From Paramicrobacterium fandaimingii (GTDB lineage: Bacteria; Actinomycetota; Actinomycetes; Actinomycetales; Microbacteriaceae), in assembly GCF_011751745.2 (NCBI RefSeq), contig NZ_CP061170.1, positions 744,001-808,000 of the forward strand: 64,000 nucleotides of DNA. The letters are read 5' to 3'. A program made the position numbers and the translations under genes. The notes under the pieces were generated by a model. That model was given only the letters and a program-made list of their open reading frames with translations. It searched no databases and was not told the DNA's origin. This document shows, piece by piece, positions 34,821 to 55,942 of the stretch (position 1 is the stretch's first letter; each line of letters starts with the position of its first letter).

Positions 34821-39932
<5,112 letters not shown>

Positions 39933-40317: not shown

Positions 40318-41151
40318 ATGGCGACCCGTACGACGTACTCTCTACCCCGCTCGCGGGTCGATATCACTGTCACCGGTGTGACAGACGTGGGCAAGCGCCG
40401 ACGCATCAATGAAGACTCGATCATCATGGCGTCGCCGATCTTCGCGGTCGCCGATGGCATGGGCGGGCATCAGCGCGGGGATGAGGCGAGCCGCGTCGTC
40501 GTCGAACAGCTGCAGCTGAGTGTGCGCCCTGGGGAACCGTCGAGCCCTGAAGTGGTGTTCACCGGCATCACAGCGGCGAACGCCCGCATTCTCTCGTGGG
40601 CGGACGAGGGCGGCCTTGCCGGCAGCACCGTCGCCGGCGTTGCGCTTGTGTCGCTTTCTGCTCAGGCCGACAGCCACTGGATGGTCTTCAACATCGGCGA
40701 TTCCCGTGTCTATGTGCTCGATGGTGAGCAGCTTCGTCAGGTCACGGTTGATCATTCGGCCGTCCAAGAGCTCATCGACCAAGGCAGCATCACACCGTCT
40801 GAAGCGGCAACGCACCCGCAGCGAAACGTCGTCACCCGCGCGGTCGGCGTCGAGACCGACGCCGATCCCGACGTGTGGCTCCTGCCGGTAGAAGGACACC
40901 AGATGTTCATCATCTGTTCCGATGGGCTGAGCCGCGAGATCTCCGATGAGGAGATTCGGAGCATCCTGCTCGAGGCGCCACGGGATCCCGCGAAGGCGCT
41001 TGTTGACCGTGCTGTGGAGGCCGGCGCTCGCGACAACGTTTCCGCCGTCGTTGTGGATGCACTCTCCGTTGATATGACGCCGCCAAGCCCGGGCTATCAT
41101 GACACGAGAGGTTTGGGCGCGCTCGAAGAGACTCTGCCGCGCCCGAAGTGA
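40318..41151 (+). CDS. PP2C-family protein Ser/Thr phosphatase
   Basis: The 277-residue cytoplasmic phosphatase has the metal-binding motifs of the PP2C/PPM family in order: RRINEDS (28-34), ADGMGGH (45-51), GDSRVYVLDG near 126, SDGLSREIS near 204 and ARDNVSAVV near 238. It should remove phosphate from Ser/Thr, probably reversing the kinase encoded two genes downstream. It is the first gene of a long co-directional cluster of FHA, kinase, surface-protein and MoxR genes. The C-terminal 25 residues are a short tail outside the domain. No transmembrane segment is seen. Confidence 0.92.
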   Translation: MATRTTYSLPRSRVDITVTGVTDVGKRRRINEDSIIMASPIFAVADGMGGHQRGDEASRVVVEQLQLSVRPGEPSSPEVVFTGITAANARILSWADEGGLAGSTVAGVALVSLSAQADSHWMVFNIGDSRVYVLDGEQLRQVTVDHSAVQELIDQGSITPSEAATHPQRNVVTRAVGVETDADPDVWLLPVEGHQMFIICSDGLSREISDEEIRSILLEAPRDPAKALVDRAVEAGARDNVSAVVVDALSVDMTPPSPGYHDTRGLGALEETLPRPK

Positions 41152-41158
41152 GGAACAT

Positions 41159-42445
41159 ATGACGCAGTTCACCTATACCGCGGCGCTACAGCGCGAATGG
41201 GTCGCCATCGCGGCATCCGGTCGACTTCTGATCGTGCGCATTGACGATGACGCCGACCTGCTGATGCGCGTCAAGCAGCTGGACATTGGTTCACTGACCG
41301 TTCACGAGACACTCGATGCGCTCACCGAGGGCGGACTGGCGCACACGCCGGCTTTCGGACTGTGCTTTTGGGTTGCCGGAACGCTGAGCACTGACGGGGT
41401 CGGTGTGATCGTGTACGGCGACACCGAGATCAGCGTGATCTCGGATGCCGACACCGTGACGGTTCGCGCGGTCGGGATCAGCGGCTGGGGCGAACAGCTT
41501 GTCGAGAACGCGACGGGCATCGAGGTGCACGGCGGCGCAGATACGGCAGACGCGCTGCCTCTGAGCCGGGGTGCAGCATGGATTTCGGGGCTTTCGCTCG
41601 GCACCGACGACGGCGTTGACGCTGCGCGTTCGACCAATGCGGGCAGCGTCGCCGACGCGGAGGCTGATCACGGTTCTGCTGACGACGCTCCGTCGATTGC
41701 ACGTGAGCCGTCGAGTGAGCCCAAGCCGAACACCGTGGCGATCGATGAGCCGCTGCGTGAGGCACCGCCGGTACCGAACGTGGCGCTTGAGAACGTTGGC
41801 GCCGAGCCGAAGCCCGACACCGCTGAGCAGCCGGTCTGGTCCGATGACGCGCCAGCTGAGTCGGTCGGCGAAGACACCGAGGTGCCAGAGATGACGCTTT
41901 TGCCGAGCGACGTTGCCGCACCAGCTCCGCTGCCCGAGCCAGACGAGCAGACGATCATGCGCACGCCAGGGGAGCCGATGGCGCCACCGCGCACCGAGCC
42001 CCTTGGTGACCACGACGGCATGACCGTGCTCGCTGAAGACGTGCGTGCCGCCCGCGATGCCGCACATCTGCCGGAGGGCGCCGTCGGCTCAGCCCTCCAC
42101 GATATTCGTGAGTATGCGTATGCTCTTGAGCTTCCGGGCGGGGGCAGGCAACAGCTGGACGCTCCCGTCGTTCTCGGCAGGGCCCCGAGCGTGTCGAACG
42201 TTCCGGCCTCCGTGCTGCCGCACCTCGTGACGCTGGCTGGAGACGACATCTCTCGCACCCACGTGCGCGTAGCCGTCGAGGGCGATGCCGTCGTCGTGAC
42301 CGATCTGCACTCGAGCAACGGCACGGTCATTGAGGTTCCGGGCCGTTCGCCGCAGCAACTGCGCGGCGGCGAGCCCGTGCCCGTGATCAGCGGAACGGTG
42401 ATCGATCTCGGATCGGGCGTGAAGCTGCGAGTACTCGAGGCATAG
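41159..42445 (+). CDS. FHA-domain protein with long acidic linker
   Basis: The 428-residue protein starts at ATG 41159 with AGGA 5 bases upstream. Residues 1-130 form a folded-looking domain I do not recognise (MTQFTYTAALQREWVAIAAS...). Residues 150-310 are acidic and proline-rich. The C-terminal ~95 residues are a forkhead-associated domain: PVVLGRAPS, ISRTHVRV and VTDLHSSNGT. FHA domains bind phosphothreonine. The linker carries DEQTIMRTP (Thr265), which resembles motifs in the neighbouring kinase and could be a phosphorylation site. It sits between the phosphatase and the kinase genes. Confidence 0.85.
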   Translation: MTQFTYTAALQREWVAIAASGRLLIVRIDDDADLLMRVKQLDIGSLTVHETLDALTEGGLAHTPAFGLCFWVAGTLSTDGVGVIVYGDTEISVISDADTVTVRAVGISGWGEQLVENATGIEVHGGADTADALPLSRGAAWISGLSLGTDDGVDAARSTNAGSVADAEADHGSADDAPSIAREPSSEPKPNTVAIDEPLREAPPVPNVALENVGAEPKPDTAEQPVWSDDAPAESVGEDTEVPEMTLLPSDVAAPAPLPEPDEQTIMRTPGEPMAPPRTEPLGDHDGMTVLAEDVRAARDAAHLPEGAVGSALHDIREYAYALELPGGGRQQLDAPVVLGRAPSVSNVPASVLPHLVTLAGDDISRTHVRVAVEGDAVVVTDLHSSNGTVIEVPGRSPQQLRGGEPVPVISGTVIDLGSGVKLRVLEA

Positions 42446-42446
42446 G

Positions 42447-44057
42447 GTGGCACGGCAGGCAGCTCAGCCGCCGCACATCCGCGGCCTCGAAGCCGAGCGG
42501 CTCCTCGGATCGGGAGGCTTCAGCGATGTCTTTCTGTATCGACAGGACCTTCCCCGTCGTCAGGTCGCCGTCAAGGTGCTCTCGCTCGACGAGGTGACCG
42601 AGAGCTCCCGTGCCGCGTTCGTTGCCGAGGCCAACCTCATGGCGCAGCTGTCTGCACACCCGTACATCGTCACTATCTACAACGCCGCTGTCGCCGAGGA
42701 CGGCCGCCCCTACTTCGTCATGGAGTACTGCCCTGGCCCGAGCTTGTCGCAGCAGTACCGGTACCGGCAGTTCACGATTGCCGACGTGCTTCGCACCGGC
42801 ATCCGCCTGACCAGTGCTGTCGCGACAGCGCATTCCGCGGGCATTCTGCACCGAGACATCAAGCCCGCGAACGTGCTCACGAATGCATACGGCTGGCCTG
42901 CTCTCGCCGACTTCGGCATTTCGTCTGCCGTTGACGCCGACCACAGTCCTGCGGGCGAGGCGCAATCGCTCGGAATGTCGATTCCGTGGTCTCCGCCCGA
43001 GATGTTCGCCGACCACCCGGTGGCCGACGTCAGAAGCGACGTGTTCTCGCTCGCCGCGACGGTCTGCACGCTGCTGGCAGGGCGGTCGCCCTTTGAAGTG
43101 CCGGGCCAGCCAAATGGTGCAATCGACCTGATCGGGCGCATCGAGCGCGGCACGGTGACGCCCATGGAGCGCACGGATGTTCCGCCATCGCTGCTCGCCG
43201 TGTTGCGGCGCGGCATGGCCTCGCGCCGAGAAGACCGGTTTCCCAGCGCCATCGACTTCGGGCGTTCGCTGCAGCGGGTCGAACTCGAGCTCTCGTACTC
43301 GGCCACGCCGCTCGACGTGCCGAACCTCGCGTCGGCCAAACCCCAGAATGACGACACGGGCGAAGATGCGACGCGAATTCGCCCGATGACCACGGTGACC
43401 CCGAGCCAGCAGACGCCCCCGCCGCAGGCGCCGACTGACGACGATGCGACGGTGGCCCGACCAGTGAAGCCCGTGACGGCGCAGCCGCCGCGTGGCGACA
43501 ACTCTCCCGCCCGGCCGCGCCCTGTCACCCCACAGGTTCCCATTCCTGCCGACACCGGTTCGACGGCGCGACGCGGCCCCGTGCCCGTGCACCCCACAGA
43601 GGAGAATGCGGATGCTGCGCCGCAGAGTGAGGCGAGCACGAAGCCCCGTCGGCGCATTCTTCCCATCGTGATCGGAGTGGTTGCCCTCATCGTTGTGGGC
43701 GGCGGGGTGACGGCATCCCTTCTTCTCGGCGGGCAGCAGGGCACAGAAGAGACACAGGCTCCGACCGGCAAACCTCTCATCATCACGGGAGTGCCGACGC
43801 CGGAAGAGCGCGGCATCACGGTGTCGGAGGACGGTTCGAGCGTGACGTTCGAGTGGGCAAACCCGGAGCCAGAAGATGGTGATGTTTTCGTCTGGTTTCG
43901 ATCAGACGGAGCGGAGCCCGGAGACAAGCATGTGGTCGCCGAGCCGACGGTCACCGTTGCCGGCGTGGCAGATGGCGATAAGGTGTGTGTCACGGTCGTG
44001 ATCAGCAGGGCCAACGGCAAGACGTCAACCGATCCATTGGAGATGTGCAGCACGTGA
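42447..44057 (+). CDS. Transmembrane Ser/Thr protein kinase with extracellular FN3-like domain
   Basis: The 536-residue receptor-type kinase starts at GTG 42447, one base after the preceding stop. The kinase domain has GSGGFSDV, the lysine VAVK (Lys43), HRDIKPANVL (Asp137) and DFG (155-157). The activation segment contains no threonine and ends WSPPE instead of the usual APE-type motif. A Pro/Thr-rich juxtamembrane region holds two DAT motifs (Thr309 and Thr335). One helix (~404-425) leads to a ~95-residue outside domain with an FN3-like pattern (VTFEWANPEPEDGDVFVWF, VCVTVVISRANG) and two Cys. It probably senses the outside and phosphorylates cluster proteins. Confidence 0.88.
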   Translation: MARQAAQPPHIRGLEAERLLGSGGFSDVFLYRQDLPRRQVAVKVLSLDEVTESSRAAFVAEANLMAQLSAHPYIVTIYNAAVAEDGRPYFVMEYCPGPSLSQQYRYRQFTIADVLRTGIRLTSAVATAHSAGILHRDIKPANVLTNAYGWPALADFGISSAVDADHSPAGEAQSLGMSIPWSPPEMFADHPVADVRSDVFSLAATVCTLLAGRSPFEVPGQPNGAIDLIGRIERGTVTPMERTDVPPSLLAVLRRGMASRREDRFPSAIDFGRSLQRVELELSYSATPLDVPNLASAKPQNDDTGEDATRIRPMTTVTPSQQTPPPQAPTDDDATVARPVKPVTAQPPRGDNSPARPRPVTPQVPIPADTGSTARRGPVPVHPTEENADAAPQSEASTKPRRRILPIVIGVVALIVVGGGVTASLLLGGQQGTEETQAPTGKPLIITGVPTPEERGITVSEDGSSVTFEWANPEPEDGDVFVWFRSDGAEPGDKHVVAEPTVTVAGVADGDKVCVTVVISRANGKTSTDPLEMCST

Positions 44058-44773
44058 CGGCACCACGTATCGAGTTCTGCGGGGAATGGTACGACGTGAG
44101 CCCCGACGAATTCTTCTACATCGGGCGCGAGGGCGACCTCGTCATCGATGACAATCCGTTTCTGCACCGCCAGTTTCTCGCCATTGGGCTCGAGAACGGC
44201 ATGTACTGGCTCATCAACGTGGGCAACGCGCTTGCGGCGACGGTGACTGACAGCACGGGCCAAGTGCAGGCGTGGCTTGCACCGGGCGCCCGGCTGCCCG
44301 TTGTGTTTCGCGAACTGCAGGTTCTGTTCAGCGCCGGGTCGACGACGTATGACTTCACCGTTCATATGGACTCGGAGTTCTTCGGAACATCACCGCTGAC
44401 GTCGGTGTCGGGAGGCGAGACGACGGTGGGTCCGATTCACCTGACCAGCAACCAGAGGCTGCTGATTCTTGCGCTCGCCGAAGACGTGCTTCGTCAGAAT
44501 TCTCCGGGGCGCGGCGAGATTCCGGCATCCGCTCAGGCTGCGGAGCGGCTGGGGTGGACGCAGACGGCATTCAACCGCAAACTCGACAACGTGTGCGACA
44601 AGCTCGACCGCTTTGGGGTGCCAGGCTTGCGGGGTGGGCGCGGCAAGCTTGCGACAAACCGTCGCTCGCGACTCGTGGAGTATGCGGTGTCGACGCGAAT
44701 GGTCGATCCGAGCGATCTGGTGCTTCTCGATCAGGACACGTCGGCTGCGGGCGTTTCCGCCGCAGATGGCTAG
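44054..44773 (+). CDS. FHA-like protein with C-terminal helix-turn-helix-like domain
   Basis: The 239-residue protein starts with a GTG that overlaps the kinase stop. The N-terminal ~110 residues look like a degenerate FHA fold: FFYIGREGDLVIDDNPFLHRQF keeps the GR and the His region. The C-terminal ~100 residues (SNQRLLILALAEDVL, then ASAQAAERLGWTQTAFNRKL and a basic stretch GGRGKLATNRRSR) resemble a winged helix. If so, it links phosphothreonine recognition to DNA binding and could regulate the cluster. Both domain calls are by eye. Its tight coupling to the kinase gene supports a shared pathway. Confidence 0.65.
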   Translation: MTAPRIEFCGEWYDVSPDEFFYIGREGDLVIDDNPFLHRQFLAIGLENGMYWLINVGNALAATVTDSTGQVQAWLAPGARLPVVFRELQVLFSAGSTTYDFTVHMDSEFFGTSPLTSVSGGETTVGPIHLTSNQRLLILALAEDVLRQNSPGRGEIPASAQAAERLGWTQTAFNRKLDNVCDKLDRFGVPGLRGGRGKLATNRRSRLVEYAVSTRMVDPSDLVLLDQDTSAAGVSAADG

Positions 44774-44799
44774 AACTTTTCTCGTGTGGAATACCATGT

Positions 44800-44805
44800 T
44801 AGGTT
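44800..44805 (+). promoter_or_regulatory. Possible -10 element upstream of the giant surface-protein gene
   Basis: TAGGTT lies in the 104-base gap before the large gene, the longest gap in this part of the cluster. The -35 region is weak. An internal promoter here is only a possibility. Confidence 0.3.
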
Positions 44806-44877
44806 AAGCTCCGGCTCAGTCTGCCTTGGGCGGTGCAAGGCGGCAAAACAACGAGACGGAACGTTTTTGTGGGGAGA

Positions 44878-47800
44878 ATGAAGGGGTGGCTTCGTGGCCG
44901 AAAGGTCACGGCATCCGTTGTCGTCGCATCCCTCATTGTCGCTGTCCCCGTGACATTCGCCGTGCTGCACCCCGGTTACCCCGCCTCAGACGTCGATCTC
45001 GAGGCGCGAGACGTGTGGGTGACGAACGGCAAAGAGCTGCTCGCCGGGCGTCTCAACAAGCAGATTGAAGAGCTGGATGCGTCGGTGGCGACGCTCGCCA
45101 ACGACATCAACATCTTTCAAGACGGCGATCTGGCGCTTCTTCACGATCGCGTCTCGTCGACGGTGCAGACGATCGATGCGGCGTATACGACACTCGGCAA
45201 CAGTGCCGACCTGCCCCCAGGCGCCGAGCTCGCGTATGGGGGAGGGCGCCTTGCCGTTCTCGAACCAGACAGCGGGAGCCTCTGGATCACAACCGTCGCC
45301 GGCGGCCTCGACTTCACGACGGTGAACAACGACCCGCTCCTGAAACTCGGGCCGGATGCCGCGATTGCCGTGTCGAAGGAGGGCGAGGTCTTCGCCGCAT
45401 CCCCGACTGATGGTGTGCTCTATTCGTACCCGCCAACCGGAGGCAAGCCAAGCGAGCAGCAGATTCCGTCGAGCGAGAGCTATCAGCTGACGGCGGCGGG
45501 CGAGACCCCCGCGCTGTTCGACGGCGATGCGAACCGGGTGATCTTTCCCGGCTCGGACCCCATCGAGCTGCCGTCAACGGGCGTCAAGCTTCAGCAGTCC
45601 TCTGCCGATCCAGGCGAGGTTCTCGTCGCGGGCGGCGATTCCCTCATGGCCGTTCCGCTGAACGGCGACGAGGTGATCGAACTCGACGCAGAGATCACCT
45701 CGCCCGCCCAGAATGCCGATGCGGTGGCAGCGCCCGTGAATCTTGAGGGATGCTGGCACGCCGCGTGGGCGTCGGGAAGCCGGTACCTGGCGAAGTGCGA
45801 CGGTGCCGGTGCCACACACGAAGAGATCGAGCCGTCGACAGCGGGCGCCGAGCTGGTGTTCCGCGTCAACAGGGACGTCATTGCCCTCAACAACCTGCAG
45901 ACCGGTGACTCGTGGCTTGTCACCGAGAACATGCGCCTCGTGCACAACTGGGAAGATGTCACACCGCCCGAAGAAGACGACGGCGAAGAGGGCGACGAGA
46001 AGTCGTCTGTTAAATCTTTCGAAGACACCCTTGCCGAACGCACAGATCAGAACCGCCCGCCGATCGCCAATGATGACGAACTCGGGGTTCGGCCCGAGCG
46101 CACGACTGTCTTGCCGCTGCTGAGCAACGACACCGACCCTGACGGCGACGTGCTCACCATCACCGATATCAAGGGCTTCTCTGACAAGTGGGGAACGCTG
46201 CAGCACATCGACGGCGGACGCGCCCTTCAGTTCTCTCCGAAGGAAGGGATCGAAGCGGGGACCTTCTCGTTCCGCTACACCGTGAGCGATGGTCGCCCGG
46301 GCGGCATTGCCGAGGGCGCCGTCAACGTGACGGTTCGCCCGCCGGAGGTGAACGAACCGCCTGAGTCTGCGCGCGTGGGGGCCACCGTCGTCGACGCGGG
46401 GCAGACGATCACGTACGACGCGCTCGCCGACTGGTCTGACCCAGACGGCGACGACATCTACCTGGAATCGGCGGCATCGGATGCCGGCGACCGCGTGAGG
46501 TTCAACCCGGACGGTCGTGTCACCGTCACGCACACCTCGGGTCAGCTCGGGCCCCGCGACATCGTGTTCACGGTGTCTGATGGCCAAGAATCCGTGACGG
46601 GCACGTTCACCCTCGACGTCAAGTCAGCCGGGTCATCGAACCCCGTGGGCACACCGGACTTCGCGCAGACGTTTGTGGGCGAGGCTGTTGACGTTCATCC
46701 GCTCGACAACGACCTGTCGCCCTCGGGTGGGCAGCTTGAGCTGCTCGGCGCCGAAGCGCTCAAAGGCGCGATCTCGGTGGCCGTCGACACCGACCGCGGA
46801 ACCATCACGGCATCCGCGGGCAAGGCCGGGGCGTACTACGTGAAATATTCGCTCGGCGCGGGGGAGCGCACGAGCATTGGGCTGCTGCGAATCGACGTGA
46901 CAGAGAAGGCCGAGGCCGATCTCGCACCGGTTGCGGTTCGCGACACCGGCTACGTGCGCCCGGGCGAGCCCGCCTTGATTCCGGTGCTCGTGAACGACGT
47001 GTCACCGACAGGTGATGTGCTTGCCGTCAAGTCGATTGAAGCGACGGGCGACGCAGCGCAGCTGTCGATCGAGCTGCTGTCGCAGAGCATCATTCGTGTC
47101 ACCGCGACCGCCGCCGTGACCGGGCAGGTTCAGTTTCGCTACACGGTGTCTGACGGGCACAAAGAATCGACGACGACAGCAACCATCGTGATGGTTCCGC
47201 CGCTGTCGAAGCATCAGGCGCCGATCGCGGCTGACGACCACGTGCGCGTGCGTGCTGGAGACATCGCGAGCGTGCCGGTTCTCGACAACGACACACACCC
47301 GGACAACGCGGGAATGGCCGTCGAGCAGGAGCTCGTGCAGGGTGCAGACAAGGGGCTCGCCTTCGTCACGGACGACAAGGTGAGGTACCAAGCGCCCGCT
47401 GAGGCAGGCGTCTACACGGCCGTGTACACGGTCATTGACGACTTCGGGCAGAAGGCGACAGCATCCGTCACGTTCACCGTTGTGGGCATGGACGAAGACA
47501 CAAACCAGGCGCCGACTGCCAAGACGCTCACCACACGTGTCTTTGCAGGCAGCTCCGTCGACATTGAGATTCCGCTTGAGGGACTCGACCCCGACGGCGA
47601 TTCGGTCGTGTACGACGGTCTGGCGAGTGCGCCGATCTTGGGCGCGGTGCGCAATGAGAAGAGCACGAGCTTCTCGTATGTCGCCGGATCGATGGAACTT
47701 GGCACCGACACATTCACCTACAAGATCAAGGACGTGCTGGGCGCCACTGCCGTCGGCACGATCAAGATCGCGGTGATCCCCCGGCCGGAGCAGGCGATGA

Positions 47801-50151
47801 GCCCCGTGGCGGTTGACGACGCCATCGAGGTGAAGCCCGGCCGGGTCGCATCGGTGCCCGTGCTGAAGAACGACTCTGACCCGAACCAGTACTCGTTCGC
47901 GCTCGACAAGAAGCTCGAAGACGTGCCCGAAGACGTCGAGGCAACGGTCGACGGCGAAAGCATTGTGATCGAGGCCCCCGACGTCGAGATGACGTTTGCG
48001 CTGCGCTATACGATTCGCAACGAGAAGGGCGGGTTCGACTCTGCCTATGTGATGGTGCGCGTCAGCGAGAAGGCGACGATTCAGCCGCCGGGCGTGGCAG
48101 ACCAGACCGTGGAGCAAGACGAGGTGATCGGCAAGGAAACCGTCGACATCGACATCTACGATGGCGCGACGAACCCCGGTGGTCGAGTCTCTGACCTCAC
48201 CGCATCGCTCGAGGGCCCGAACGCAGACCAGGCGCAGATTCTCGAGAACGGCAAGGTGCGGGTCACTCTCGGTGACACGCGCATGGCAATCACGTTCCGA
48301 CTCACCAATGACACGGACAAGCTGAGCTCTGCCGCGTTCATCGTTGTGCCTCCGTACTCCGACGGGCAGCCGCCGCGGCTGCGAGAGGATCTGCCCGAGC
48401 AGATCGTCGATATGAACGACACGAAGGAGTGGAAGCTCGACGACATCGCGTATTCGCCGTCGGGCAAAGACATTGAGATCACCGGGGCCGACGGGGTGAG
48501 TGCGTCGCGCGGCGACGGCAAACCATCGTTCGTCGACGAAAAGACGCTGAGATTCACTCCGATCAAGGATTACCGAGGGCCGGCGTCGATCAGCTTTGAG
48601 GTGACGGACGGCACGTCGACGGGCACGACGATGCTTGTGCTGCCGATCACTGTCGGCGACCCCAACTTCGAAGACATCCCGCCAACGTTCACGCCGCCGT
48701 CGATCACGATCGAGGCCGGGGAGGACCCCGTCTCGTTCGATCTGCGCAGTGCGGCGTCGCACCCGAACCCCGACGTCACCGACCAGATCACGTTCAGCGA
48801 TCTGCGCGGTCAAGGCAATGGCATCCAAGGGAACCTCAGTGGGTCAGAGCTCTCGGTGCAGGCGCCGTTCGGAACGACGCCCGGAACGTCTGTGACCCTG
48901 GGCGTCACAATGTCGTTCAAAGATTTCGACGTTGACGGGCAGATCACCGTGACGGTTGTGTCGTCGACGCGGCCGATGCCTGTCGCCGTCGACCATGTGA
49001 ACAATGACGCCCGCAAGGGCAAGAGCTACACGATCGATGCGCTCGCGGGAGCGTTCAATCCGTTCCCCGGGGAAGACCTCACGATCGTGAATGCCGAGCT
49101 GGACTCCGGCGATGCACAAGTGAGCACAGACGGCACGACGGTGACGGTGAAGACCGGCCCGGCGAAGAGCCAGGAGATCAGCGTTCTCTATACGATTCAG
49201 GATGCTACCGGGGACAAGCACAGGCGTTCGACGGCGCGCATCACCGTCGTTGTGAAGGACGTGCCCGATGCGCCGCCAGCACCGAGCGTCTCGGCGAGCG
49301 ATAGCAACACGAGGGTCGTCGTCACGGGGTCGCCCGCAGACAACGGCTCGGCGATCAAGAGCTACACGGTGAAGCGCAGCGATGGGGACACCAGAACCTG
49401 TCAAGCCGGTGTTGCATGTTCGATGTCGGCGAAGAACGGCACGTCGTACTCGTTCCGCGTCATGGCGACGAATGGCGTAGGAGACAGTTCATGGTCCCCT
49501 GCGTCGAAGAGCGTGACGCCCTATGGTGTGCCCGGCGCACCCCGCTCAACCGACATCGACAAGCAGGGGGACTGGGCGAGCACCCCGGTGACGATGCGCT
49601 GGGCCACGCCGAACGACACCGGCGGGAAGATCACCACATACGAGTGGCAGGTTCGTGGAAGCGGCAGCGACAGCGGGTCGACAACGAGCACATCTGCGAA
49701 GAGCAAGAGCATGCCAGCGGGTACCTACAACTTCAGGGTGCGTGCGTGTTCGCCCGCAGGCTGTGGCTCATGGACTGGGTCGGGGAACGTCGTCATCAAG
49801 AACGAACCACCACCACCGCCGCCGGACCCGGTTGTTACCCACGTCTATGGCGTCGATGGGCCCAAAACGCGCTGCTGGCAAGGCAACTGCTCGACCGGTA
49901 CATACCGCATCGCGATCGCCTGGAAGCACTTCACGAGTGGCACGTATCAGGTTCATGCCGAGTATTGCCGAGACGGCGATTGGTCGGCTGTCGCTGACAG
50001 CTGGTACAACGTCAAAATGGACAAGGACGGCAAGGAAGAGAGCAAGATCTCGGCCTGGATTCAGCCCGACCTCTCTCGATGCGGTATTCGAGTGAAAATT
50101 CGCCAGAACGGGTCGCTGGTTTACACGAGCCCAGGTTTTTCGTTCCCCTGA
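44878..50151 (+). CDS. Giant membrane-anchored Ig-like/FN3 repeat protein
   Basis: About 1757 residues from ATG 44878; in-frame GTGs at 44869 and 44833 are alternatives. A basic N-terminus (MKGWLRGRK) and one helix anchor it; it has no lipobox or LPXTG motif. Residues ~35-360 look like a beta-propeller-type domain, followed by an acidic linker (EEDDGEEGDE). About eleven Ig/cadherin-like repeats of ~97 residues then start near bases 46051, 46351, 46634, 46924, 47218, 47506, 47798, 48082, 48364, 48673 and 48967, many with NDTDPDGD-like loops. Two FN3 domains (from ~49264 and ~49525) and a Cys-containing C-terminal cap follow. It should be a long rod outside the membrane. The phospho-signalling genes upstream and MoxR/DUF58 genes downstream suggest regulated assembly. 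Confidence 0.85.
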   Translation: MKGWLRGRKVTASVVVASLIVAVPVTFAVLHPGYPASDVDLEARDVWVTNGKELLAGRLNKQIEELDASVATLANDINIFQDGDLALLHDRVSSTVQTIDAAYTTLGNSADLPPGAELAYGGGRLAVLEPDSGSLWITTVAGGLDFTTVNNDPLLKLGPDAAIAVSKEGEVFAASPTDGVLYSYPPTGGKPSEQQIPSSESYQLTAAGETPALFDGDANRVIFPGSDPIELPSTGVKLQQSSADPGEVLVAGGDSLMAVPLNGDEVIELDAEITSPAQNADAVAAPVNLEGCWHAAWASGSRYLAKCDGAGATHEEIEPSTAGAELVFRVNRDVIALNNLQTGDSWLVTENMRLVHNWEDVTPPEEDDGEEGDEKSSVKSFEDTLAERTDQNRPPIANDDELGVRPERTTVLPLLSNDTDPDGDVLTITDIKGFSDKWGTLQHIDGGRALQFSPKEGIEAGTFSFRYTVSDGRPGGIAEGAVNVTVRPPEVNEPPESARVGATVVDAGQTITYDALADWSDPDGDDIYLESAASDAGDRVRFNPDGRVTVTHTSGQLGPRDIVFTVSDGQESVTGTFTLDVKSAGSSNPVGTPDFAQTFVGEAVDVHPLDNDLSPSGGQLELLGAEALKGAISVAVDTDRGTITASAGKAGAYYVKYSLGAGERTSIGLLRIDVTEKAEADLAPVAVRDTGYVRPGEPALIPVLVNDVSPTGDVLAVKSIEATGDAAQLSIELLSQSIIRVTATAAVTGQVQFRYTVSDGHKESTTTATIVMVPPLSKHQAPIAADDHVRVRAGDIASVPVLDNDTHPDNAGMAVEQELVQGADKGLAFVTDDKVRYQAPAEAGVYTAVYTVIDDFGQKATASVTFTVVGMDEDTNQAPTAKTLTTRVFAGSSVDIEIPLEGLDPDGDSVVYDGLASAPILGAVRNEKSTSFSYVAGSMELGTDTFTYKIKDVLGATAVGTIKIAVIPRPEQAMSPVAVDDAIEVKPGRVASVPVLKNDSDPNQYSFALDKKLEDVPEDVEATVDGESIVIEAPDVEMTFALRYTIRNEKGGFDSAYVMVRVSEKATIQPPGVADQTVEQDEVIGKETVDIDIYDGATNPGGRVSDLTASLEGPNADQAQILENGKVRVTLGDTRMAITFRLTNDTDKLSSAAFIVVPPYSDGQPPRLREDLPEQIVDMNDTKEWKLDDIAYSPSGKDIEITGADGVSASRGDGKPSFVDEKTLRFTPIKDYRGPASISFEVTDGTSTGTTMLVLPITVGDPNFEDIPPTFTPPSITIEAGEDPVSFDLRSAASHPNPDVTDQITFSDLRGQGNGIQGNLSGSELSVQAPFGTTPGTSVTLGVTMSFKDFDVDGQITVTVVSSTRPMPVAVDHVNNDARKGKSYTIDALAGAFNPFPGEDLTIVNAELDSGDAQVSTDGTTVTVKTGPAKSQEISVLYTIQDATGDKHRRSTARITVVVKDVPDAPPAPSVSASDSNTRVVVTGSPADNGSAIKSYTVKRSDGDTRTCQAGVACSMSAKNGTSYSFRVMATNGVGDSSWSPASKSVTPYGVPGAPRSTDIDKQGDWASTPVTMRWATPNDTGGKITTYEWQVRGSGSDSGSTTSTSAKSKSMPAGTYNFRVRACSPAGCGSWTGSGNVVIKNEPPPPPPDPVVTHVYGVDGPKTRCWQGNCSTGTYRIAIAWKHFTSGTYQVHAEYCRDGDWSAVADSWYNVKMDKDGKEESKISAWIQPDLSRCGIRVKIRQNGSLVYTSPGFSFP

Positions 50152-50188
50152 TGGCGACGAACTGCACGGTAACGAGTTGAGGAGACAG

Positions 50189-51157
50189 GTGGAGATTACA
50201 CAGGAGCAGGCGGACTGGTTCAAGGGCGCCTTCACGAGCCTCGTCGACAACGTCGATAAGGCGATCGTCGGCAAGCAGGAGGTCATCAGGCTCGTCATTG
50301 CGTCGTTGCTGACCGGCGGCCACGTGCTGCTCGAGGACTACCCCGGAACGGGTAAGACCGTGCTGGCGAAATCCCTTGCGAACACGCTCGAGGGCGCAAG
50401 CTCCCGCATCCAGTTCACTCCCGACCTGCTGCCGAGCGACGTCACCGGCGTCACCATCTACAACCAGCAGACGCACGTCTTCGAGTTTCACAAGGGGCCG
50501 ATCTTCGCGCAGATCGTGCTGGCCGACGAAATCAACCGCGCATCGCCCAAAACGCAGAGCGCCCTGCTCGAGGTGATGGAGGAAGGTCTCGTCACCGTCG
50601 ACGGCGAGACGCATCCTGTCGGAAGCCCATTCATGGTGATCGCGACGCAGAACCCGGTTGAGCAGTCGGGAACGTACAAGCTCCCTGAGGCTCAGCTCGA
50701 CCGCTTTCTCGTGAAGACCTCGTTGGGCTACCCCGACCGCGACACGAGCGTCAACCTGCTCATGGACGCGGCAAACCGGTCGCGGGCGTCGAGCGTTGAG
50801 GCGATCATCAACGCCGAGTCGGTGAACGCCATGATCGACCTCGCCGGGCAGGTGCACGTGGAGCGCTCGATCATGGAGTACATCACCGACATCATTCAGG
50901 CGACGCGCGCAGACAAGGATGCCGCGCTCGGGGTGAGCATGCGCGGTGCGCTGTCACTTGCGCGCATCGTCAAGGTGTGGGCGCTCAGCCAGGGCCGCAC
51001 CTATGCCACGCCGGACGATGTGAATACTCTCGCCGTTCCCGTGCTCGCGCACCGACTGCTGATGGACCCGGAGTCGGAGTTTGCCGGCACCACCGCAGAG
51101 CAGGTCATCGACCGCATCCTTCTCTCAGTCACTCCGCCGGCGTACCGCGCAGCATGA
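50189..51157 (+). CDS. MoxR-family AAA+ ATPase
   Basis: The 322-residue cytoplasmic ATPase has Walker A DYPGTGKT, Walker B IVLADEINRA and the sensor region ATQNPVEQSGTYKLPEAQLDRF, typical of the MoxR group. Such ATPases act as chaperones, often with DUF58 or vWA partners. The GTG at 50189 is chosen, with GAGGAG 5 bases upstream; an in-frame TTG at 50177 would overlap that site. It starts 37 bases after the giant surface-protein gene and overlaps the DUF58 gene by 4 bases. Confidence 0.92.
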   Translation: MEITQEQADWFKGAFTSLVDNVDKAIVGKQEVIRLVIASLLTGGHVLLEDYPGTGKTVLAKSLANTLEGASSRIQFTPDLLPSDVTGVTIYNQQTHVFEFHKGPIFAQIVLADEINRASPKTQSALLEVMEEGLVTVDGETHPVGSPFMVIATQNPVEQSGTYKLPEAQLDRFLVKTSLGYPDRDTSVNLLMDAANRSRASSVEAIINAESVNAMIDLAGQVHVERSIMEYITDIIQATRADKDAALGVSMRGALSLARIVKVWALSQGRTYATPDDVNTLAVPVLAHRLLMDPESEFAGTTAEQVIDRILLSVTPPAYRAA

Positions 51158-52440
51158 CAACGACCGTCGAGCACGAAAGCCCGCAGTCGACGACCAGGAT
51201 GTCGCCGCTGCGGAACCGTGCTGCGACGACGACTCAGAGAGTCAGGCAGGGGCTCGCGACACTCGTCGTGCCGGTGACAGAGGCCGTGCACCCGTTCTTC
51301 GCCACCGTCAGTTCGACGGGATGGCTCGTTGCCATTGTGGGGATCGTGCTGCTTGCCGTCGGCCTTGTGCTCGGATGGGCCGAGGTGGTGTTTGTCGGGG
51401 CGACGCTCGTCGCCGCGTTCGTCATCGCAGCGCTGTTCACCATTGGCCGTTCGCGGTTCGCCGTCTCTGTGCGGCTGAACCCGCGTCGCGTCACGGTCGG
51501 GGAGCGCGCGGTCGGCGAGATGATCGTCACAAATACGGCGCAACGCAACTCACTGGCGACAACGTTCGAGTTGCCGGTCGGAGACGGTCTTGCCGTTTTC
51601 GACATTCCGGGGCTCGCTCCAGACGACGGATCGGAAGAGCTGTTTGCCGTACCGACGGCACATCGCGCGGTGATCATCGCCGGGCCCGCCCGCTCGGTGC
51701 GTGGCGATCGCCTTGGGCTGTTTCGCCGCAGCGTCGACTGGACAGACCCCATCGAGCTCTTTGTTCACCCGCGCGTCGTGCGACTGCACCCGACCGCCGC
51801 CGGGCTCGTGCGCGATCTCGAGGGCCAGATCACCAAGAAGATCACAAACAACGACCTCGCGTTTCATGCACTGCGTGACTACGTGCGCGGCGACGACGTG
51901 AGGTATGTGCACTGGCGCAGCTCCGCTCGCACGGGCCAGCTGATGGTGCGGCAGTTTGAAGAGTCGCGTCGCTCGCAGCTCACCATCGTGCACAGCACGA
52001 ACAAGCGCTATTACGCCAGTGAAGAAGAGTTTGAGACCGCTGTGTCTGTCACCGCGTCTATCGCGACCCAGGTGATCAGGGATGGTACGGAGATCAGCGT
52101 CGTCACCGAGGGGATGAGACTGCGCACCCACACGATGCAGGCGATGCTCGACGACACCTGCCGCATGCACGGGTTCGATTCGGACGAGTCGGCGCGCACC
52201 TTCGCCCGCGAAGCGACGAAACGGCTTCCGGACCCGAGCGTCGTCGTGATCGTGGCGGGGTCGATGATGGAGCCGTCAGACTACCGCAGCATCCAGAGGC
52301 TCTTTTCGGGCGAGGTTAACGTGATCGCCCTGCGCATCACCGAGGGCGGGCAGCCGCGCGTTCAAGACGTTGCGGGACTGCAGGTGTACACGATCGGCAC
52401 GCTGCGCGACCTTCCGCGCATCATGGAGAAGGCGCAGTGA
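51154..52440 (+). CDS. DUF58 domain membrane protein
   Basis: The 428-residue protein's ATG overlaps the MoxR stop. Two hydrophobic helices (~45-85) precede a beta-rich section and the DUF58 core: ALRDYVRGDDVRYVHWRSSA followed by LMVRQFEESRRSQL. DUF58 proteins are vWA-like partners of MoxR ATPases. The MoxR-DUF58-transglutaminase order is a widespread bacterial arrangement of poorly known function. The C-terminal ~110 residues look like the vWA-like fold. Confidence 0.9.
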   Translation: MTTTVEHESPQSTTRMSPLRNRAATTTQRVRQGLATLVVPVTEAVHPFFATVSSTGWLVAIVGIVLLAVGLVLGWAEVVFVGATLVAAFVIAALFTIGRSRFAVSVRLNPRRVTVGERAVGEMIVTNTAQRNSLATTFELPVGDGLAVFDIPGLAPDDGSEELFAVPTAHRAVIIAGPARSVRGDRLGLFRRSVDWTDPIELFVHPRVVRLHPTAAGLVRDLEGQITKKITNNDLAFHALRDYVRGDDVRYVHWRSSARTGQLMVRQFEESRRSQLTIVHSTNKRYYASEEEFETAVSVTASIATQVIRDGTEISVVTEGMRLRTHTMQAMLDDTCRMHGFDSDESARTFAREATKRLPDPSVVVIVAGSMMEPSDYRSIQRLFSGEVNVIALRITEGGQPRVQDVAGLQVYTIGTLRDLPRIMEKAQ

Positions 52441-54878
52441 GCGAGCGGCGCGCGGCGCGAAAATCGAAGCGGCAGGAGGGGCCCGCGTGGAGACGGGCGC
52501 TCAGCGGCGTCTTTTCGCGGACGCCGCGCGCCACGCGAACCGCATCACCGTCGATGCCAGGCACGGTCAGTGCGCAGACCTGGATTGACATCGCCGTCGT
52601 CGCGGGACTGATTCTTGTCGGCGCGCTCGGCTGGATGCCGGTGTTCGACGGGCGCGCGCACCTGCTCGCCACGGTCGGAGGGCTCGCCGTCGGGCTCGGC
52701 GTCGCGTGGTGCAGTCATCGGCTGCGTCTCAACGCGGTGACGACGCTGCTCATGCTGTTCATCGCCTACTTTCTCTTCGGCAGCGCCTTCGCGCTTTCGG
52801 GCGACGCCCTCTGGTTTGTGCTGCCGACCCTCGACACGGTGCGCGACCTCGCCGTCGGGGCGGTTTTCGGCTGGACCGACGTGGTGACGCTCGCTGCTCC
52901 GGTTGGCGCGCCGCCCCACCTCGTGGTTCTTCCCTACGTGCTGTCGTGCGTGCTCGGCGCGCTCAGCGGCATCCTGCTGATGCGGTGGCTTCCCACCCGC
53001 TATCGCACGCTGTGGCGCTGTGCCGCCTTGCTGCTGCTGCCGCTTGTCGCTTTTGTTCTGCCCGTCGTGCTCGGCACGCGGGAGCCGTACTTCCCCGCCG
53101 TCCGCGGCCTGATCTTCGCGGTGGTCGCGCTCATCTGGCTGGGCTGGCGTCGCCCCGAGGGAAAGAACATCAGCCTCTCTGAGAAGGCCGGCCTGCGGCG
53201 CGCCCGTGTGCTCGGCACCGCTGCTGTTGCCCTCGCGTCCGTCATCATCGGCGGGCTCGCGGCATCCATTCTTCTTCCCCCGGCGGAAAGCCGACTCGTC
53301 GTGCGCGACGAGGTGCAGCCTCCGTTCGACCCCGAGCAGTTCGCCAGCCCGCTCTCGGGCTACCGCATCTACACGAAGACCCTCAACGAGACCGACCTGC
53401 TGTCGGTGACAGGGCTCATTCCGGGCGATCGCATTCGCCTTGCCGTGATGGACACCTACGACGGGCACCTGTGGAACGTCGCCGGCCCCGAGCTCTCGAC
53501 AGACGGCTCGGGACTCTACGAGCTCAGCGGCTCGACTCTGCCGACCGCACCGCTCGCCGACATCGTCGACCAGCGCACCATCGACGTCGACGTCGTGGGC
53601 TATGCGGGCCCGTGGCTGCCCACCATGGGCGTTCCGGAGGTCATCGACCTCGCCGGGCTCGACCGCGAGCGGTCGTCTGGCTTCCGCTTCAACGCGGCGA
53701 CGGGCACGGCAGTGCTGATCGATGGTGTCACGACGCACGTCGAGTATTCGATGCGCAGCGGCATTCAGGCGGTTCCCGGCGACGAGTCGCTCATCGACAC
53801 CCCCGTGGCGTCCGTCGGAATGCCGCCCGTCGAGAAAGTCCCTGACATCGTTGTCGCGACGGCGAAAGAGTACGCGGGTGCCGCCGAATCGCCCATCGAA
53901 CAGCTGCGCGCCATTGAGTCGGCACTCGTGACCAACGGCTACCTCAGCCACGGTCGAGAGACGGATGCCGCGTCATCGCGCGCCGGTCACGGAGCCGACC
54001 GCATGGAAGAGCTGTTCACACGAACGCAGCTGATCGGCGACGAAGAGCAGTATGCATCGGCGATGGCGCTCATGGCCCGGAGCTTCGGCTACCCCGCCCG
54101 CGTCGTCATGGGCTTCGCCCCGAAGACGATCATCGAGGGCTCCCCGACGACGGTGACGGGCGACGACGTGACGGCCTGGGTCGAGGTGCCGTTCGAGGGC
54201 GTCGGCTGGATTCCGTTCTTCCCCACGCCAGACGAGACCGAGATTCCACAGGAGCAGAACCCCAAGCCGCAGAGCGAGCCTCAGCCGCAGGTGCGGCAGC
54301 CACCGCGCTCAGAGAAGCGCCCAGACGACCTGCTGACCGACAGCGAGATCGACGACAAGAAAGACAAAGAAGACGAGAACGCCTTCGCTCTTCCCGGCTG
54401 GGCCATCGCGATCATCGCAACGGTGGGCGGCCTTCTTCTGCTGTACCTCGTGCCGTTTGTGATCATCGCCCTGATCAAGCGCCGCCGCGTCAAGCGCCGC
54501 CGCCGGGCCGGCCAGCCGCACGCCCGAGCGTCTGGCGCCTGGGATGAGTTTCTCGACAGGCATTCCGAACTCGGGTACGAGGTGCCGGTTCGAACCCGCG
54601 CGGGCGTCATCGATGCGCTTTCGGTGCAGAGAGGCACGGATGCCGCGGCGACGGCCACGCTCGACCGCATGGCGTTCGACGCCGACGCCGCCGTCTTCGC
54701 CGATGGAGAGGCCGCAGACGAGACGATCGACCGGCTGTGGACGCAGACAGACGAGCAGGCTCGGCTCTCGGCACGGGCGGTAAGCTGGTGGCGACGTCAG
54801 GTGAGCCGATTCCGGGTCAGTCGTGCGCGACGAGCTCCAAAGCGGCCGACGGTGTCGAGGAGGAAAGATGAGCGCTGA
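52437..54878 (+). CDS. TgpA-like transglutaminase-fold membrane protein, catalytic triad replaced
   Basis: The 813-residue protein's GTG overlaps the DUF58 stop. The N-terminus is basic, then six to seven helices (~45-285) lead to an outside region of ~330 residues. It contains a transglutaminase-like core (DEEQYASAMALMARSFGYPA then RVVMGF). The usual Cys of GxCEHFA is Glu536, the His of HAWxEV is Thr579 and the Asp of FDPTP is Phe595, so the core is almost certainly not catalytic. A Pro/Gln-rich linker, one more helix (~655-675) and a ~130-residue cytoplasmic tail follow. It may bind the surface protein rather than crosslink it. Confidence 0.85.
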   Translation: MSERRAARKSKRQEGPAWRRALSGVFSRTPRATRTASPSMPGTVSAQTWIDIAVVAGLILVGALGWMPVFDGRAHLLATVGGLAVGLGVAWCSHRLRLNAVTTLLMLFIAYFLFGSAFALSGDALWFVLPTLDTVRDLAVGAVFGWTDVVTLAAPVGAPPHLVVLPYVLSCVLGALSGILLMRWLPTRYRTLWRCAALLLLPLVAFVLPVVLGTREPYFPAVRGLIFAVVALIWLGWRRPEGKNISLSEKAGLRRARVLGTAAVALASVIIGGLAASILLPPAESRLVVRDEVQPPFDPEQFASPLSGYRIYTKTLNETDLLSVTGLIPGDRIRLAVMDTYDGHLWNVAGPELSTDGSGLYELSGSTLPTAPLADIVDQRTIDVDVVGYAGPWLPTMGVPEVIDLAGLDRERSSGFRFNAATGTAVLIDGVTTHVEYSMRSGIQAVPGDESLIDTPVASVGMPPVEKVPDIVVATAKEYAGAAESPIEQLRAIESALVTNGYLSHGRETDAASSRAGHGADRMEELFTRTQLIGDEEQYASAMALMARSFGYPARVVMGFAPKTIIEGSPTTVTGDDVTAWVEVPFEGVGWIPFFPTPDETEIPQEQNPKPQSEPQPQVRQPPRSEKRPDDLLTDSEIDDKKDKEDENAFALPGWAIAIIATVGGLLLLYLVPFVIIALIKRRRVKRRRRAGQPHARASGAWDEFLDRHSELGYEVPVRTRAGVIDALSVQRGTDAAATATLDRMAFDADAAVFADGEAADETIDRLWTQTDEQARLSARAVSWWRRQVSRFRVSRARRAPKRPTVSRRKDER

Positions 54879-55443
54879 CGACACGTGGAACGGCGTGCCT
54901 CTTCCGCCTCGCCCGCCGTTGCCTCCGCTCCCTGACCAGCAGGAGGATCCTCCGAGGGCCCCCGACTCCGTCACGCGCCCCGGCTTCATCGGGCTGCCGC
55001 CCGGCATGCAGGCAGACATCGACACCGTTCCGGCATCCGCCGATCGTGTGGCGCCTGCCCCGGTCGGCACGCCGTCGACGCCAGACGGCAATGCGTCAGA
55101 CATCGACATCGAGTTTGCCGATGGCACCCGCATTCCCATCGACGGAATCGTGCTGATCGGCCGAGACCCGAGCGCGCAGACCGCGTTTCCCGACGCCGAG
55201 TTGCGGGCTGTCTCTGACGTCAGTCGCAGCGTCTCGAAGACGCACGCTGCCGTGCAGTGGTCACGCGGCTCGGTGTGGGTGACCGATCTTCACTCGACAA
55301 ACGGAACCCGCATCGTTGATGCAGCGGGGCGTGAAACCGTGTGCGTGCCCGACGCGCCGACCCCCGCGCCCCGCGATGGGGGGATCCTCTTCGGGCGCGC
55401 TCTCGCTTCGCTTCGGGCGAGGAGCGGCGATGGATCCGAATGA
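54868..55443 (+). CDS. Small FHA-domain protein
   Basis: The 191-residue protein starts at ATG 54868 (GAGGAAAG site) and overlaps the preceding gene by 11 bases. A proline-rich head (PLPPRPPLPPLPD) of about 85 residues leads to a C-terminal FHA domain: IVLIGRDPS, SRSVSKTHAAVQW and VTDLHSTNGT. The Arg, Ser, His and Asn expected for phosphothreonine binding are all present. It is the third FHA-type protein of the cluster and a candidate target or scaffold for the kinase. Confidence 0.88.
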   Translation: MSADDTWNGVPLPPRPPLPPLPDQQEDPPRAPDSVTRPGFIGLPPGMQADIDTVPASADRVAPAPVGTPSTPDGNASDIDIEFADGTRIPIDGIVLIGRDPSAQTAFPDAELRAVSDVSRSVSKTHAAVQWSRGSVWVTDLHSTNGTRIVDAAGRETVCVPDAPTPAPRDGGILFGRALASLRARSGDGSE

Positions 55444-55942
55444 GGCACGAGATCCTCGCCTGATCGCTCTTGCGCAGACCGCGTTCGCTGTCGCGCTGTA
55501 TCTCGCGCTCGTGATCGCCTGCTTCGGCATCCTGAGTCTTCTGACCGACACTGACGTCGTTGACATCGACGCGAGCCTGCTGCTCGGACCGGCGATGATC
55601 GGGACGTCCGTCGTGATCGTCGCCCTGCGCATCATCGGTGCCGCCGTGCGACTCGTGCACGAGCGAGAACACGGTGATCTCGCGCTGCGTGTTCCGATCG
55701 TCGGCGGCCTGCTCACGGGGGTTCTCGCGCTTCTCGGCTATGTGGTGATCGGCGGGATGCTGCAGGCCGTCGGCCTTCGCGACCCCGAGGTGCTTGTCGG
55801 CTTCGCGCTGCACGAGCTGTTGCGGCCGTACAGTCTGGCCCTTGGTGCGCTGGCCATGATTGTTCACATTGCCTTCGTCGTGTCGATCGCGCTCGGCGGC
55901 GACGAGCCGAAACGGCCCCTCTGGCCGTGGGAGAAAGACTGA
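55430..55942 (+). CDS. Small four-helix membrane protein
   Basis: The 170-residue product starts at ATG 55430 with GAGGAG upstream and overlaps the FHA gene by 14 bases. It has four hydrophobic helices, near ALAQTAFAVALYLALVIACF, GPAMIGTSVVIVALRIIG, IVGGLLTGVLALLGYVVIGG and ALGALAMIVHIAFVVSIAL. The family is not recognised. Its overlap with the FHA gene suggests a role in the same machine. Confidence 0.75.
   Translation: MDPNEARDPRLIALAQTAFAVALYLALVIACFGILSLLTDTDVVDIDASLLLGPAMIGTSVVIVALRIIGAAVRLVHEREHGDLALRVPIVGGLLTGVLALLGYVVIGGMLQAVGLRDPEVLVGFALHELLRPYSLALGALAMIVHIAFVVSIALGGDEPKRPLWPWEKD

What the first reader, a model, noticed from the sequence alone, without database searches (positions are those of the whole stretch)
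40318..55942. Phospho-signalling and giant surface-protein cluster: best candidate for an undescribed system
Ten co-directional genes, most with overlapping stops and starts, encode a PP2C phosphatase, three FHA or FHA-like proteins, a receptor kinase with an FN3-like sensor, a ~1757-residue Ig/FN3 rod, a MoxR ATPase, a DUF58 protein, a transglutaminase-fold membrane protein and a small membrane protein. Seen: gene order, overlaps and motifs. Known: PP2C/kinase/FHA trios signal through phosphothreonine; MoxR-DUF58 pairs act as chaperone machines. Inferred: the kinase senses the wall or the rod and controls MoxR/DUF58-driven assembly or remodelling of the rod. I know of no established function for the set.
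Basis: partly seen in the sequence, partly recalled or inferred. Interest (0 to 1): 0.78.

Follow-up and report, generated by a model that had tools for sequence, protein, structure and literature searches.

The report
Widespread kinase-linked bacterial surface-rod operon
This is a conserved operon of Actinobacteria that makes a giant surface rod together with a membrane machine and a phosphorylation switch; it is the same kind as the PFNA operon described in bifidobacteria and explained there by contact with the host immune system, yet it is common in related bacteria too, and its supposed cross-linking enzyme has lost its catalytic residues.

Summary
Ten co-directional genes fill 99.6% of 40318-55942: PP2C, FHA, receptor kinase, an FHA-fold protein with a helical half, an anchored rod of up to 1,772 residues, MoxR, DUF58, a transglutaminase-fold membrane protein, FHA, and a small membrane protein. 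It is not an undescribed system: kinase-rod-MoxR-DUF58-transglutaminase is the content and order of the Bifidobacterium PFNA operon, and the genes are homologous, down to the kinase's outer domain. The PFNA papers I saw say it occurs only in bifidobacteria. Here it is in 106 of 198 genomes of the order (a few low-scoring hits lack the rod) and in named Microbacterium, Cellulomonas, Arthrobacter and others; Bifidobacterium is one nested branch. New details: the rod starts with a beta-propeller, read as eight-bladed; the 'transglutaminase' has no catalytic cysteine in 98 of 98 rows with a residue there and in the 120 best-listed Bifidobacterium-type homologues, while 14 of 17 alignable controls keep it; the kinase module changes sides of the core. 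Best model: phosphorylated MoxR tunes a MoxR-DUF58-pseudotransglutaminase machine that handles the rod. Kinase-to-MoxR phosphorylation is published for B. longum; the rest is inference.

The parts
40318..41151 (+). PP2C-family Ser/Thr phosphatase, 277 aa
   Evidence: Pfam PP2C_2 7e-11; NCBIfam Stp1_PP2C_phos 1.3e-59, below its cut-off
41159..42445 (+). FHA protein A, 428 aa: own N-terminal domain, C-terminal FHA
   Evidence: Pfam FHA 1.7e-7 at the C-terminus; N-terminal 140 aa found in 14 loci, window included, at E 1e-3
42447..44057 (+). Receptor Ser/Thr kinase, 536 aa, one hydrophobic stretch (404-422), outer domain about 426-536
   Evidence: Pfam Pkinase 1.3e-37; TM; outer domain matches kinases of 43 loci, window included, E up to 0.01, Bifidobacterium among them; no significant Pfam match for the outer domain
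44054..44773 (+). FHA fold plus helical C-terminal half (possible HTH), 239 aa
44833..50151 (+). Giant rod, up to 1,772 aa: N-terminal TM anchor, beta-propeller (about residues 56-377, read as eight-bladed), Big_9/cadherin-like Ig repeats, two fn3, lineage-specific tip
50189..51157 (+). MoxR AAA+ ATPase, 322 aa
   Evidence: Pfam AAA_3 4.9e-63, AAA_lid_2 3.1e-21; DEIN-type and ATQNP motifs in 78 of 78 MoxR hits of the named loci
51154..52440 (+). DUF58 protein, 428 aa, two N-terminal hydrophobic stretches
   Evidence: Pfam DUF58 1.5e-16; TMs; own clade in tree
52437..54878 (+). TgpA-like membrane protein, 813 aa: TM bundle, transglutaminase-fold domain without the catalytic triad, TM, conserved C-terminal tail
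   Evidence: Pfam TgpA_N 2.6e-13, Transglut_core 1.7e-16; alignment to TgpA 6g49 puts E, T and F at Cys, His, Asp; 8 N-terminal and 1 C-terminal hydrophobic stretches
54868..55443 (+). FHA protein B, 191 aa
   Evidence: Pfam FHA 2.8e-8; tblastn match in 18 of 20 loci; an FHA on the same strand in 49 of 65 named loci
55430..55942 (+). Small protein with 4 hydrophobic stretches, 170 aa; accessory
   Evidence: TMs; found only in L017-L020 of the 20 loci

Best explanation
A PFNA-type operon: an ancestral actinobacterial envelope system. The rod is held in the membrane by its N-terminal helix, with a beta-propeller next to the membrane and an Ig/FN3 rod reaching through the wall. MoxR works from inside through the DUF58 membrane adaptor on the TgpA-like protein, whose outer domain is a dead transglutaminase that binds or grips rather than cross-links, and so controls export, anchoring or shape of the rod. 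The receptor kinase reads a conserved outer ligand and, with the phosphatase and FHA proteins, tunes MoxR by phosphorylation; the FHA plus helical protein carries the state to expression or to MoxR. Shown here: gene content, homology, conservation, predicted propeller fold, loss of the triad. Published for B. longum: kinase phosphorylates MoxR; the eight genes are co-transcribed. Inferred: contacts between MoxR, DUF58, TgpA-like protein and rod, and the kinase's ligand.
For: Core order in 19 of 20 picked loci and 56 of 65. DUF58 of giant-rod clusters is a clade (74 rows, 100/99) apart from six ordinary DUF58, with Bifidobacterium nested (12 rows, 100/100). Kinase outer domain shared with Bifidobacterium (37% over 91 aa to L066). 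FHA-helical gene in 68 of 106 genomes with the DUF58 hit against 6 of 92 without, within 20 kb of it in 55 of the 68 (27 upstream, 28 downstream). Cys absent in 98 of 98 rows of cluster TGs with a residue there, 94 distinct, and Ser in the 120 best-listed of 216 Bifidobacterium-type homologues, while 14 of 17 alignable controls keep Cys. Propeller. Pkb2 phosphorylates MoxR: (PMC8430577).
Against: No experiment in the passages I saw shows MoxR or DUF58 acting on the rod. Rods without the rest of the core exist (L025, L130, L134), so some rods may not need the machine. 38 of 106 genomes with the DUF58 hit lack the FHA-helical gene, so it is not essential. Loss of Cys is not confined to rod clusters: 3 of 17 alignable controls and 4 of 5 rodless or weak-rod loci L060-L064 lack it. 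34 of 104 cluster TGs still have both His and Asp, and Ser is invariant in the 120 Bifidobacterium-type proteins, so other chemistry is not excluded. The helical half was not matched to a known DNA-binding fold.
Confidence: 0.5

Rival explanations
1. Host-interaction system, as published for PFNA: the rod is an adhesin and cytokine binder and the kinase senses host immune signals; outside Bifidobacterium it would do the same with other hosts.
For: FN3 fragment binds TNF-alpha in vitro, TNF-alpha raises PFNA expression, positive selection reported.
Against: The operon and the kinase's outer domain occur in many non-bifidobacterial genera, with Bifidobacterium as one nested branch; that many of those genera are not gut or host bacteria is from recall. 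The papers' premise that orthologues exist only in bifidobacteria is contradicted. Host binding may still be a later use of the rod.
Confidence: 0.2
2. The rod plus propeller is itself the sensor arm: tension or ligand binding outside is passed through the TgpA-like protein and DUF58 to MoxR and the kinase module, which report wall state to transcription through the FHA-helical protein.
For: Five of the ten genes are signalling genes; the FHA-helical protein is better conserved than the rod (59-97% against 34-92% identity in the 8 of 20 loci that have it) and shows weak HTH_8 hits; the TgpA-like protein keeps a conserved tail beyond its last TM (54 loci, window included).
Against: No DNA-binding fold established; the protein was not found in the Bifidobacterium clusters fetched nor in the genomes G027 and G189 of that family.
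Confidence: 0.2
3. Neighbouring but separate functions: a general Ser/Thr signalling module that happens to lie by a rod/MoxR module.
For: The FHA-helical gene lies elsewhere in 13 of 68 genomes and occurs in 6 genomes without the DUF58 hit, at times beside another MoxR (one of the six, G258, has a weak-scoring core next to it). In 29 of 55 named loci outside the window's clade no kinase was found on the fetched stretch.
Against: The gene stays near in 55 of 68 genomes although it changes sides; published kinase-to-MoxR phosphorylation.
Confidence: 0.1

Closest known systems
PFNA operon of Bifidobacterium (pkb2-fn3-aaa-atp-duf58-tgm, plus prpC, hypothetical, fha)
   Same: Same five core genes in the same order and direction, homologous proteins, homologous kinase outer domain, transglutaminase site without Cys.
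   Different: Here PP2C and one FHA lie upstream of the kinase, one further FHA-fold gene sits between kinase and rod, and the ~200-aa hypothetical of the B. scaligerum locus has no match in the window better than E 0.31; the host is not a Bifidobacterium; kinase outer domain about 29-37% identical.
Ordinary MoxR-DUF58-transglutaminase (TgpA/DUF3488) operons
   Same: Same three-gene series and domain families, also present elsewhere in this genome (L161).
   Different: 14 of 17 alignable controls keep Cys and His; the DUF58s of the six put in the tree lie outside the giant-rod clade; no rod beside them in the control loci, apart from a rod-like match on the opposite strand in L163.
TgpA of Pseudomonas aeruginosa (PDB 6g49; organism from recall)
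   Same: Transglutaminase core aligned at E 2e-4; TgpA_N by Pfam.
   Different: The window has Glu, Thr and Phe at the places of Cys, His and Asp (which residues are catalytic is from recall).
EmbR of M. tuberculosis (PDB 2fez), FHA plus DNA-binding regulator
   Different: EmbR's DNA-binding part has another layout (recall); the helical half here had no fold match in the list and is barely tested.
MoxR-vWA-beta-propeller ternary systems (Kaur et al. 2020, PMC7159879, passages seen)
   Same: MoxR, a vWA-related protein (DUF58 as vWA-related is from PMC12067865) and a propeller.
   Different: There the set is a conflict system; DUF58 has 0 occurrences in its main text; here the propeller is the foot of a surface rod. 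The Pfam bpMoxR model scores far lower (6e-12) than AAA_3 (5e-63).

Membership tests
PFNA operon | Five core genes kinase, FN3 protein, AAA/MoxR, DUF58, transglutaminase-like in this order, one direction | tested here: met
   one extra gene (FHA-helical) sits between kinase and rod
PFNA operon | Homology of the genes to Bifidobacterium PFNA genes | tested here: met
   Named Bifidobacterium loci; B. scaligerum L065/L048 has kinase-rod-MoxR-DUF58-TG-PP2C-hypothetical-FHA; DUF58 tree; kinase outer domain. B. longum itself was not fetched
PFNA operon | Two FN3 domains near the C-terminus of the giant protein | tested here: met
   fn3, 2 stretches, best 1480-1559
PFNA operon | Cytokine-receptor WS-type motifs in both FN3 domains | tested here: inconclusive
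   The first FN3 reads SSWSPAS; in the second I see no such motif by eye; no motif test was run
PFNA operon | Kinase phosphorylates MoxR; genes co-transcribed | not testable with these tools
   Published for B. longum
PFNA operon | Restricted to Bifidobacterium (stated property) | tested here: not met
   present in many other genera, so the stated restriction fails; it is a claim about range, not a part of the operon
Active transglutaminase (TgpA type) | Cys-His-Asp triad | tested here: not met
vWA domain with metal site (DxSxS) in DUF58 | MIDAS motif | tested here: inconclusive
   0 of 75 cluster DUF58 match a strand-DxSxS pattern, but only 3 of 20 controls do, so the test does not discriminate; a looser pattern matched 5 of 75, all in one stretch that lies ahead of the strand in Bifidobacterium
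FHA-type regulator with DNA-binding domain (EmbR-like) | FHA fold | tested here: met
FHA-type regulator with DNA-binding domain (EmbR-like) | DNA-binding HTH | tested here: inconclusive
   HTH_8 at best E 0.01 in 16 of 47; fold search dominated by the FHA half
MoxR Proper (MRP) subfamily | Placement of the MoxR protein within MRP | not tested
   No MoxR tree was built; the PFNA papers place theirs there

The most novel reading that the evidence does not exclude
PFNA is not a host-immunity invention of bifidobacteria but an old actinobacterial machine in which a catalytically dead transglutaminase serves as the outer grip of a MoxR-DUF58 membrane motor that, under Ser/Thr phosphorylation control, exports, anchors or cocks a giant propeller-footed rod.
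Probability: 0.4. Interest if true: 0.72.

Novelty: new variant of a known kind. Interest (0 to 1): 0.5.

Why it matters
The PFNA operon is studied as a bifidobacterial device for sensing and binding human cytokines, partly because orthologues were said to be absent elsewhere. Finding it in about half of the sampled genomes of one order, with the same kinase outer domain, means its basic job should be sought in bacterial envelope biology and can be tested in free-living relatives. The missing catalytic triad tells experimenters not to assume cross-linking but to look for binding. It also gives the MoxR-DUF58-transglutaminase-fold sets, whose DUF58 role is stated to be unknown, a candidate substrate: the rod.

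Tried and rejected
Considered and dropped: (1) 'DUF58 has lost its metal site' as a special feature: ordinary DUF58 mostly lack it by the same pattern. (2) Defence system: PADLOC matches go mainly to the kinase (34 families), with one weak match for PP2C and four for MoxR; no system emerges. (3) rRNA adjacency as part of the system: the rRNA operon upstream (34821-40146) is also next to the cluster in L017-L019; Rfam finds none in L020-L023, whose fetched stretches reach only about 1.2-1.5 kb upstream. (4) The small membrane protein as a core part: only in L017-L020. (5) The pattern G....GK[TS] hits only 6 of 78 MoxR; the window reads DYPGTGKT there; by recall that is ordinary for MoxR, so I draw nothing from it. 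(6) FHA-helical protein against sequences of solved structures: one match at E 0.056, to a ribosomal protein, not credible. (7) Promoter scan: no + strand sigma-70-like site found, not informative. (8) A paper search for pseudoenzyme, transglutaminase-like and actinobacteria found 0 papers.

Caveats on counts: genome samples include the window's own genome. The 20 loci were picked by me from the places listed. Of the 9 of 65 without the core order, L130 and L134 are rods alone, L082 and L137 lack MoxR in its place, and L100, L102, L108, L115 and L123 have tandem rods, where the best-scoring rod need not be the last. Kinase, PP2C and FHA are all three present in 37 of 65. The 104 TG rows include the window and some genomes twice (at least B. 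scaligerum and a Schaalia); 6 have a gap at the Cys column and one (second ORF of L116) is misaligned; 94 cores are distinct. In one search, hits of G247 and G289 (under 220 bits) lack a rod and G275 has only a weak one, so 106 is slightly high. Of 20 DUF58-centred loci, the 15 with DUF58 above 280 bits all have the rod; MoxR is listed in 12 of those 15 by a one-best-hit-per-frame listing. In the DUF58 tree the joining of Bifidobacterium to the Cellulomonas group carries a long-branch warning and lies at an open fork. Of 20 control loci, two have no TG (L160, L162) and one could not be aligned (L179).

Full report
WHAT IS THERE. The stretch 40318-55942 holds ten + strand genes with almost no spacing: coding covers 99.6%, junctions range from a 59-base gap to a 14-base overlap, and three are 4-base overlaps. 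Order: PP2C; FHA; receptor kinase; FHA-fold protein with a helical half; giant rod; MoxR; DUF58; TgpA/transglutaminase-fold membrane protein; FHA; small membrane protein (Pfam; fold of gene 4). A 16S-23S-5S rRNA operon lies just upstream and RNA polymerase beta and beta' genes further up. The window is part of a 3.62 Mb single-contig genome.

CONSERVATION. The rod has relatives in 28 of 40 genomes of the same genus, family and order, own genome included. I picked 20 such places and searched each cluster protein against them: 19 of 20 have rod-MoxR-DUF58-TG in that order, most with kinase, PP2C or FHA genes nearby; L025 is a rod alone. With a DUF58 profile, 106 of 198 genomes of the order match at E 1e-55; in a sample of the class 12 of 148 match at 1e-70, seven of them from the window's own order and five from one other family (f88); in a sample of the phylum 6 of 149 score as cluster-type (above 280 bits), three of them outside the class, and all three have the rod (L050-L052). 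So it is common in one order and sporadic beyond.

IT IS THE PFNA OPERON. The papers describe in Bifidobacterium a 'species-specific' operon pkb2-fn3-aaa-atp-duf58-tgm, with prpC, a hypothetical gene and fha in some species (PMC8430577: abstract and its sections 3 and 4 read). The same scan returned 80 named loci, from Bifidobacterium, Microbacterium, Cellulomonas, Cellulosimicrobium, Actinotalea, Rathayibacter, Arthrobacter, Pseudarthrobacter, Sinomonas, Agromyces, Cryobacterium, Actinomyces, Schaalia, Brachybacterium, Promicromonospora and a Microthrixaceae genome, among others. Of the 65 with at least 7.5 kb after the rod, 56 carry rod-MoxR-DUF58-TG in order, 47 a kinase, 52 a PP2C and 49 an FHA on the same strand, 37 all three. 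In a DUF58 tree, the giant-rod DUF58s form one clade (74 rows, 100/99) apart from six ordinary ones; the 12 Bifidobacterium rows are one branch (100/100) in a 20-row group with Cellulomonas relatives and Sanguibacter, and the window falls in the 26-row clade (97/94) that holds them. In that clade the kinase lies before the rod in the window and in 23 of the 25 named loci (the other two, L107 and L081, are on contigs that end soon upstream); among the other 55 named loci it follows the rod in 25, precedes it in 1 (L069, a Bifidobacteriaceae genome without a DUF58 row) and was not found on the fetched stretch in 29. The kinase's outer domain, which the PFNA authors call highly variable, is recognisably shared: kinases of 43 loci match at E up to 0.01, window included, among them at least 10 of the 12 named Bifidobacterium loci. 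[quoted passage not shown] I found no paper that reports it elsewhere in searches of the open library, which misses most subscription journals; PMC12067865 (passages) only notes that the mycobacterial moxR operon resembles PFNA in gene order.

THE DEAD TRANSGLUTAMINASE. Against TgpA (6g49) the window has Glu, Thr and Phe where TgpA has Cys, His and Asp. In 104 TG rows from rod clusters, none has Cys: Asp 52, Ser 17, Glu 13, Gly 6, Ala 6, Gln 4, gap 6; yet the neighbouring Gly, Gln and Tyr/Phe are nearly fixed; His is kept in 42 and Asp in 52, both together in 34. Among the 120 listed of 216 homologues of the B. scaligerum protein (those with an organism name are all Bifidobacterium), 120 have Ser at the Cys place, none His and none Asp. 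As a control I took 20 ordinary DUF58 loci: 18 have a TG, 17 could be aligned, and 14 of the 17 have Cys and His, one of them in this genome (L161); L163, L164 and L166 do not. Of the five lower-scoring rodless or weak-rod loci L060-L064 only L064 keeps Cys, so loss is not confined to rod clusters. The literature calls the protein a transglutaminase, presumably a cysteine protease.

THE SIGNALLING MODULE. PP2C, kinase and MoxR keep their motifs in the named loci (PP2C DG[MVLI][GP]G 54 of 54; MoxR DEIN-type 78 of 78; kinase HRD-type 41 of 49, four of the misses being kinases cut by the end of the fetched stretch). Gene 4 is an FHA fold with a helical half, a family with 3785 hits; of the 120 listed, those with a name are mostly 'hypothetical protein' and a few 'FHA domain-containing'. 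It occurs in 74 of 198 genomes of the order: 68 of the 106 with the DUF58 hit and 6 of the 92 without; in the 68 it lies within 20 kb upstream in 27, downstream in 28 and elsewhere in 13. I fetched 6 of those 13 and all 6 genomes without the hit: it often sits with PP2C and FHA, in four cases beside a MoxR of another kind, and one of the six (G258) has a weak-scoring core next to it. So a signalling module is tied to the rod module although it moves around it.

HOW IT MIGHT WORK. See Best explanation. The strongest outside support is the published phosphorylation of MoxR by Pkb2 (as told in PMC8430577; primary paper not read). The steps MoxR-DUF58, DUF58-TgpA-like protein and TgpA-like protein-rod are inference from gene order, topology and the dead active site.

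VERDICT. A real, widely conserved operon; a variant of a known kind, not a new kind. The surprise is in range and in the dead enzyme, which change how the known operon should be studied.

Noticed in passing
L091, L100, L102, L105, L108, L112, L115, L121, L140: Two or three tandem giant rods per cluster, each with its own propeller; possible rod diversification by duplication (reference list).
   Followed up: partly
L110: Whole core duplicated head to tail in Microbacterium galbinum: rod-MoxR-DUF58-TG-FHA-PP2C twice.
   Followed up: no
L152, L153, L154, L147: PP2C-(FHA)-FHA-helical gene beside a different MoxR (with a weak DUF58 in three), without a rod nearby: the regulator may serve MoxR systems more broadly.
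   Followed up: no
window 58945-62103 (-): Another large repeat protein (DUF7927, DUF11) close to the cluster, on the other strand.
   Followed up: no
window 56692-58080 (+): Protein with a proline/glutamine-rich start and a hydrophobic stretch, no Pfam match, just downstream.
   Followed up: no
L060-L063: MoxR-DUF58-TG sets without a clear rod whose TG also lacks Cys: dead transglutaminases are not limited to rod clusters.
   Followed up: partly
L033: In this relative the kinase directly follows the TG gene instead of preceding the rod.
   Followed up: no
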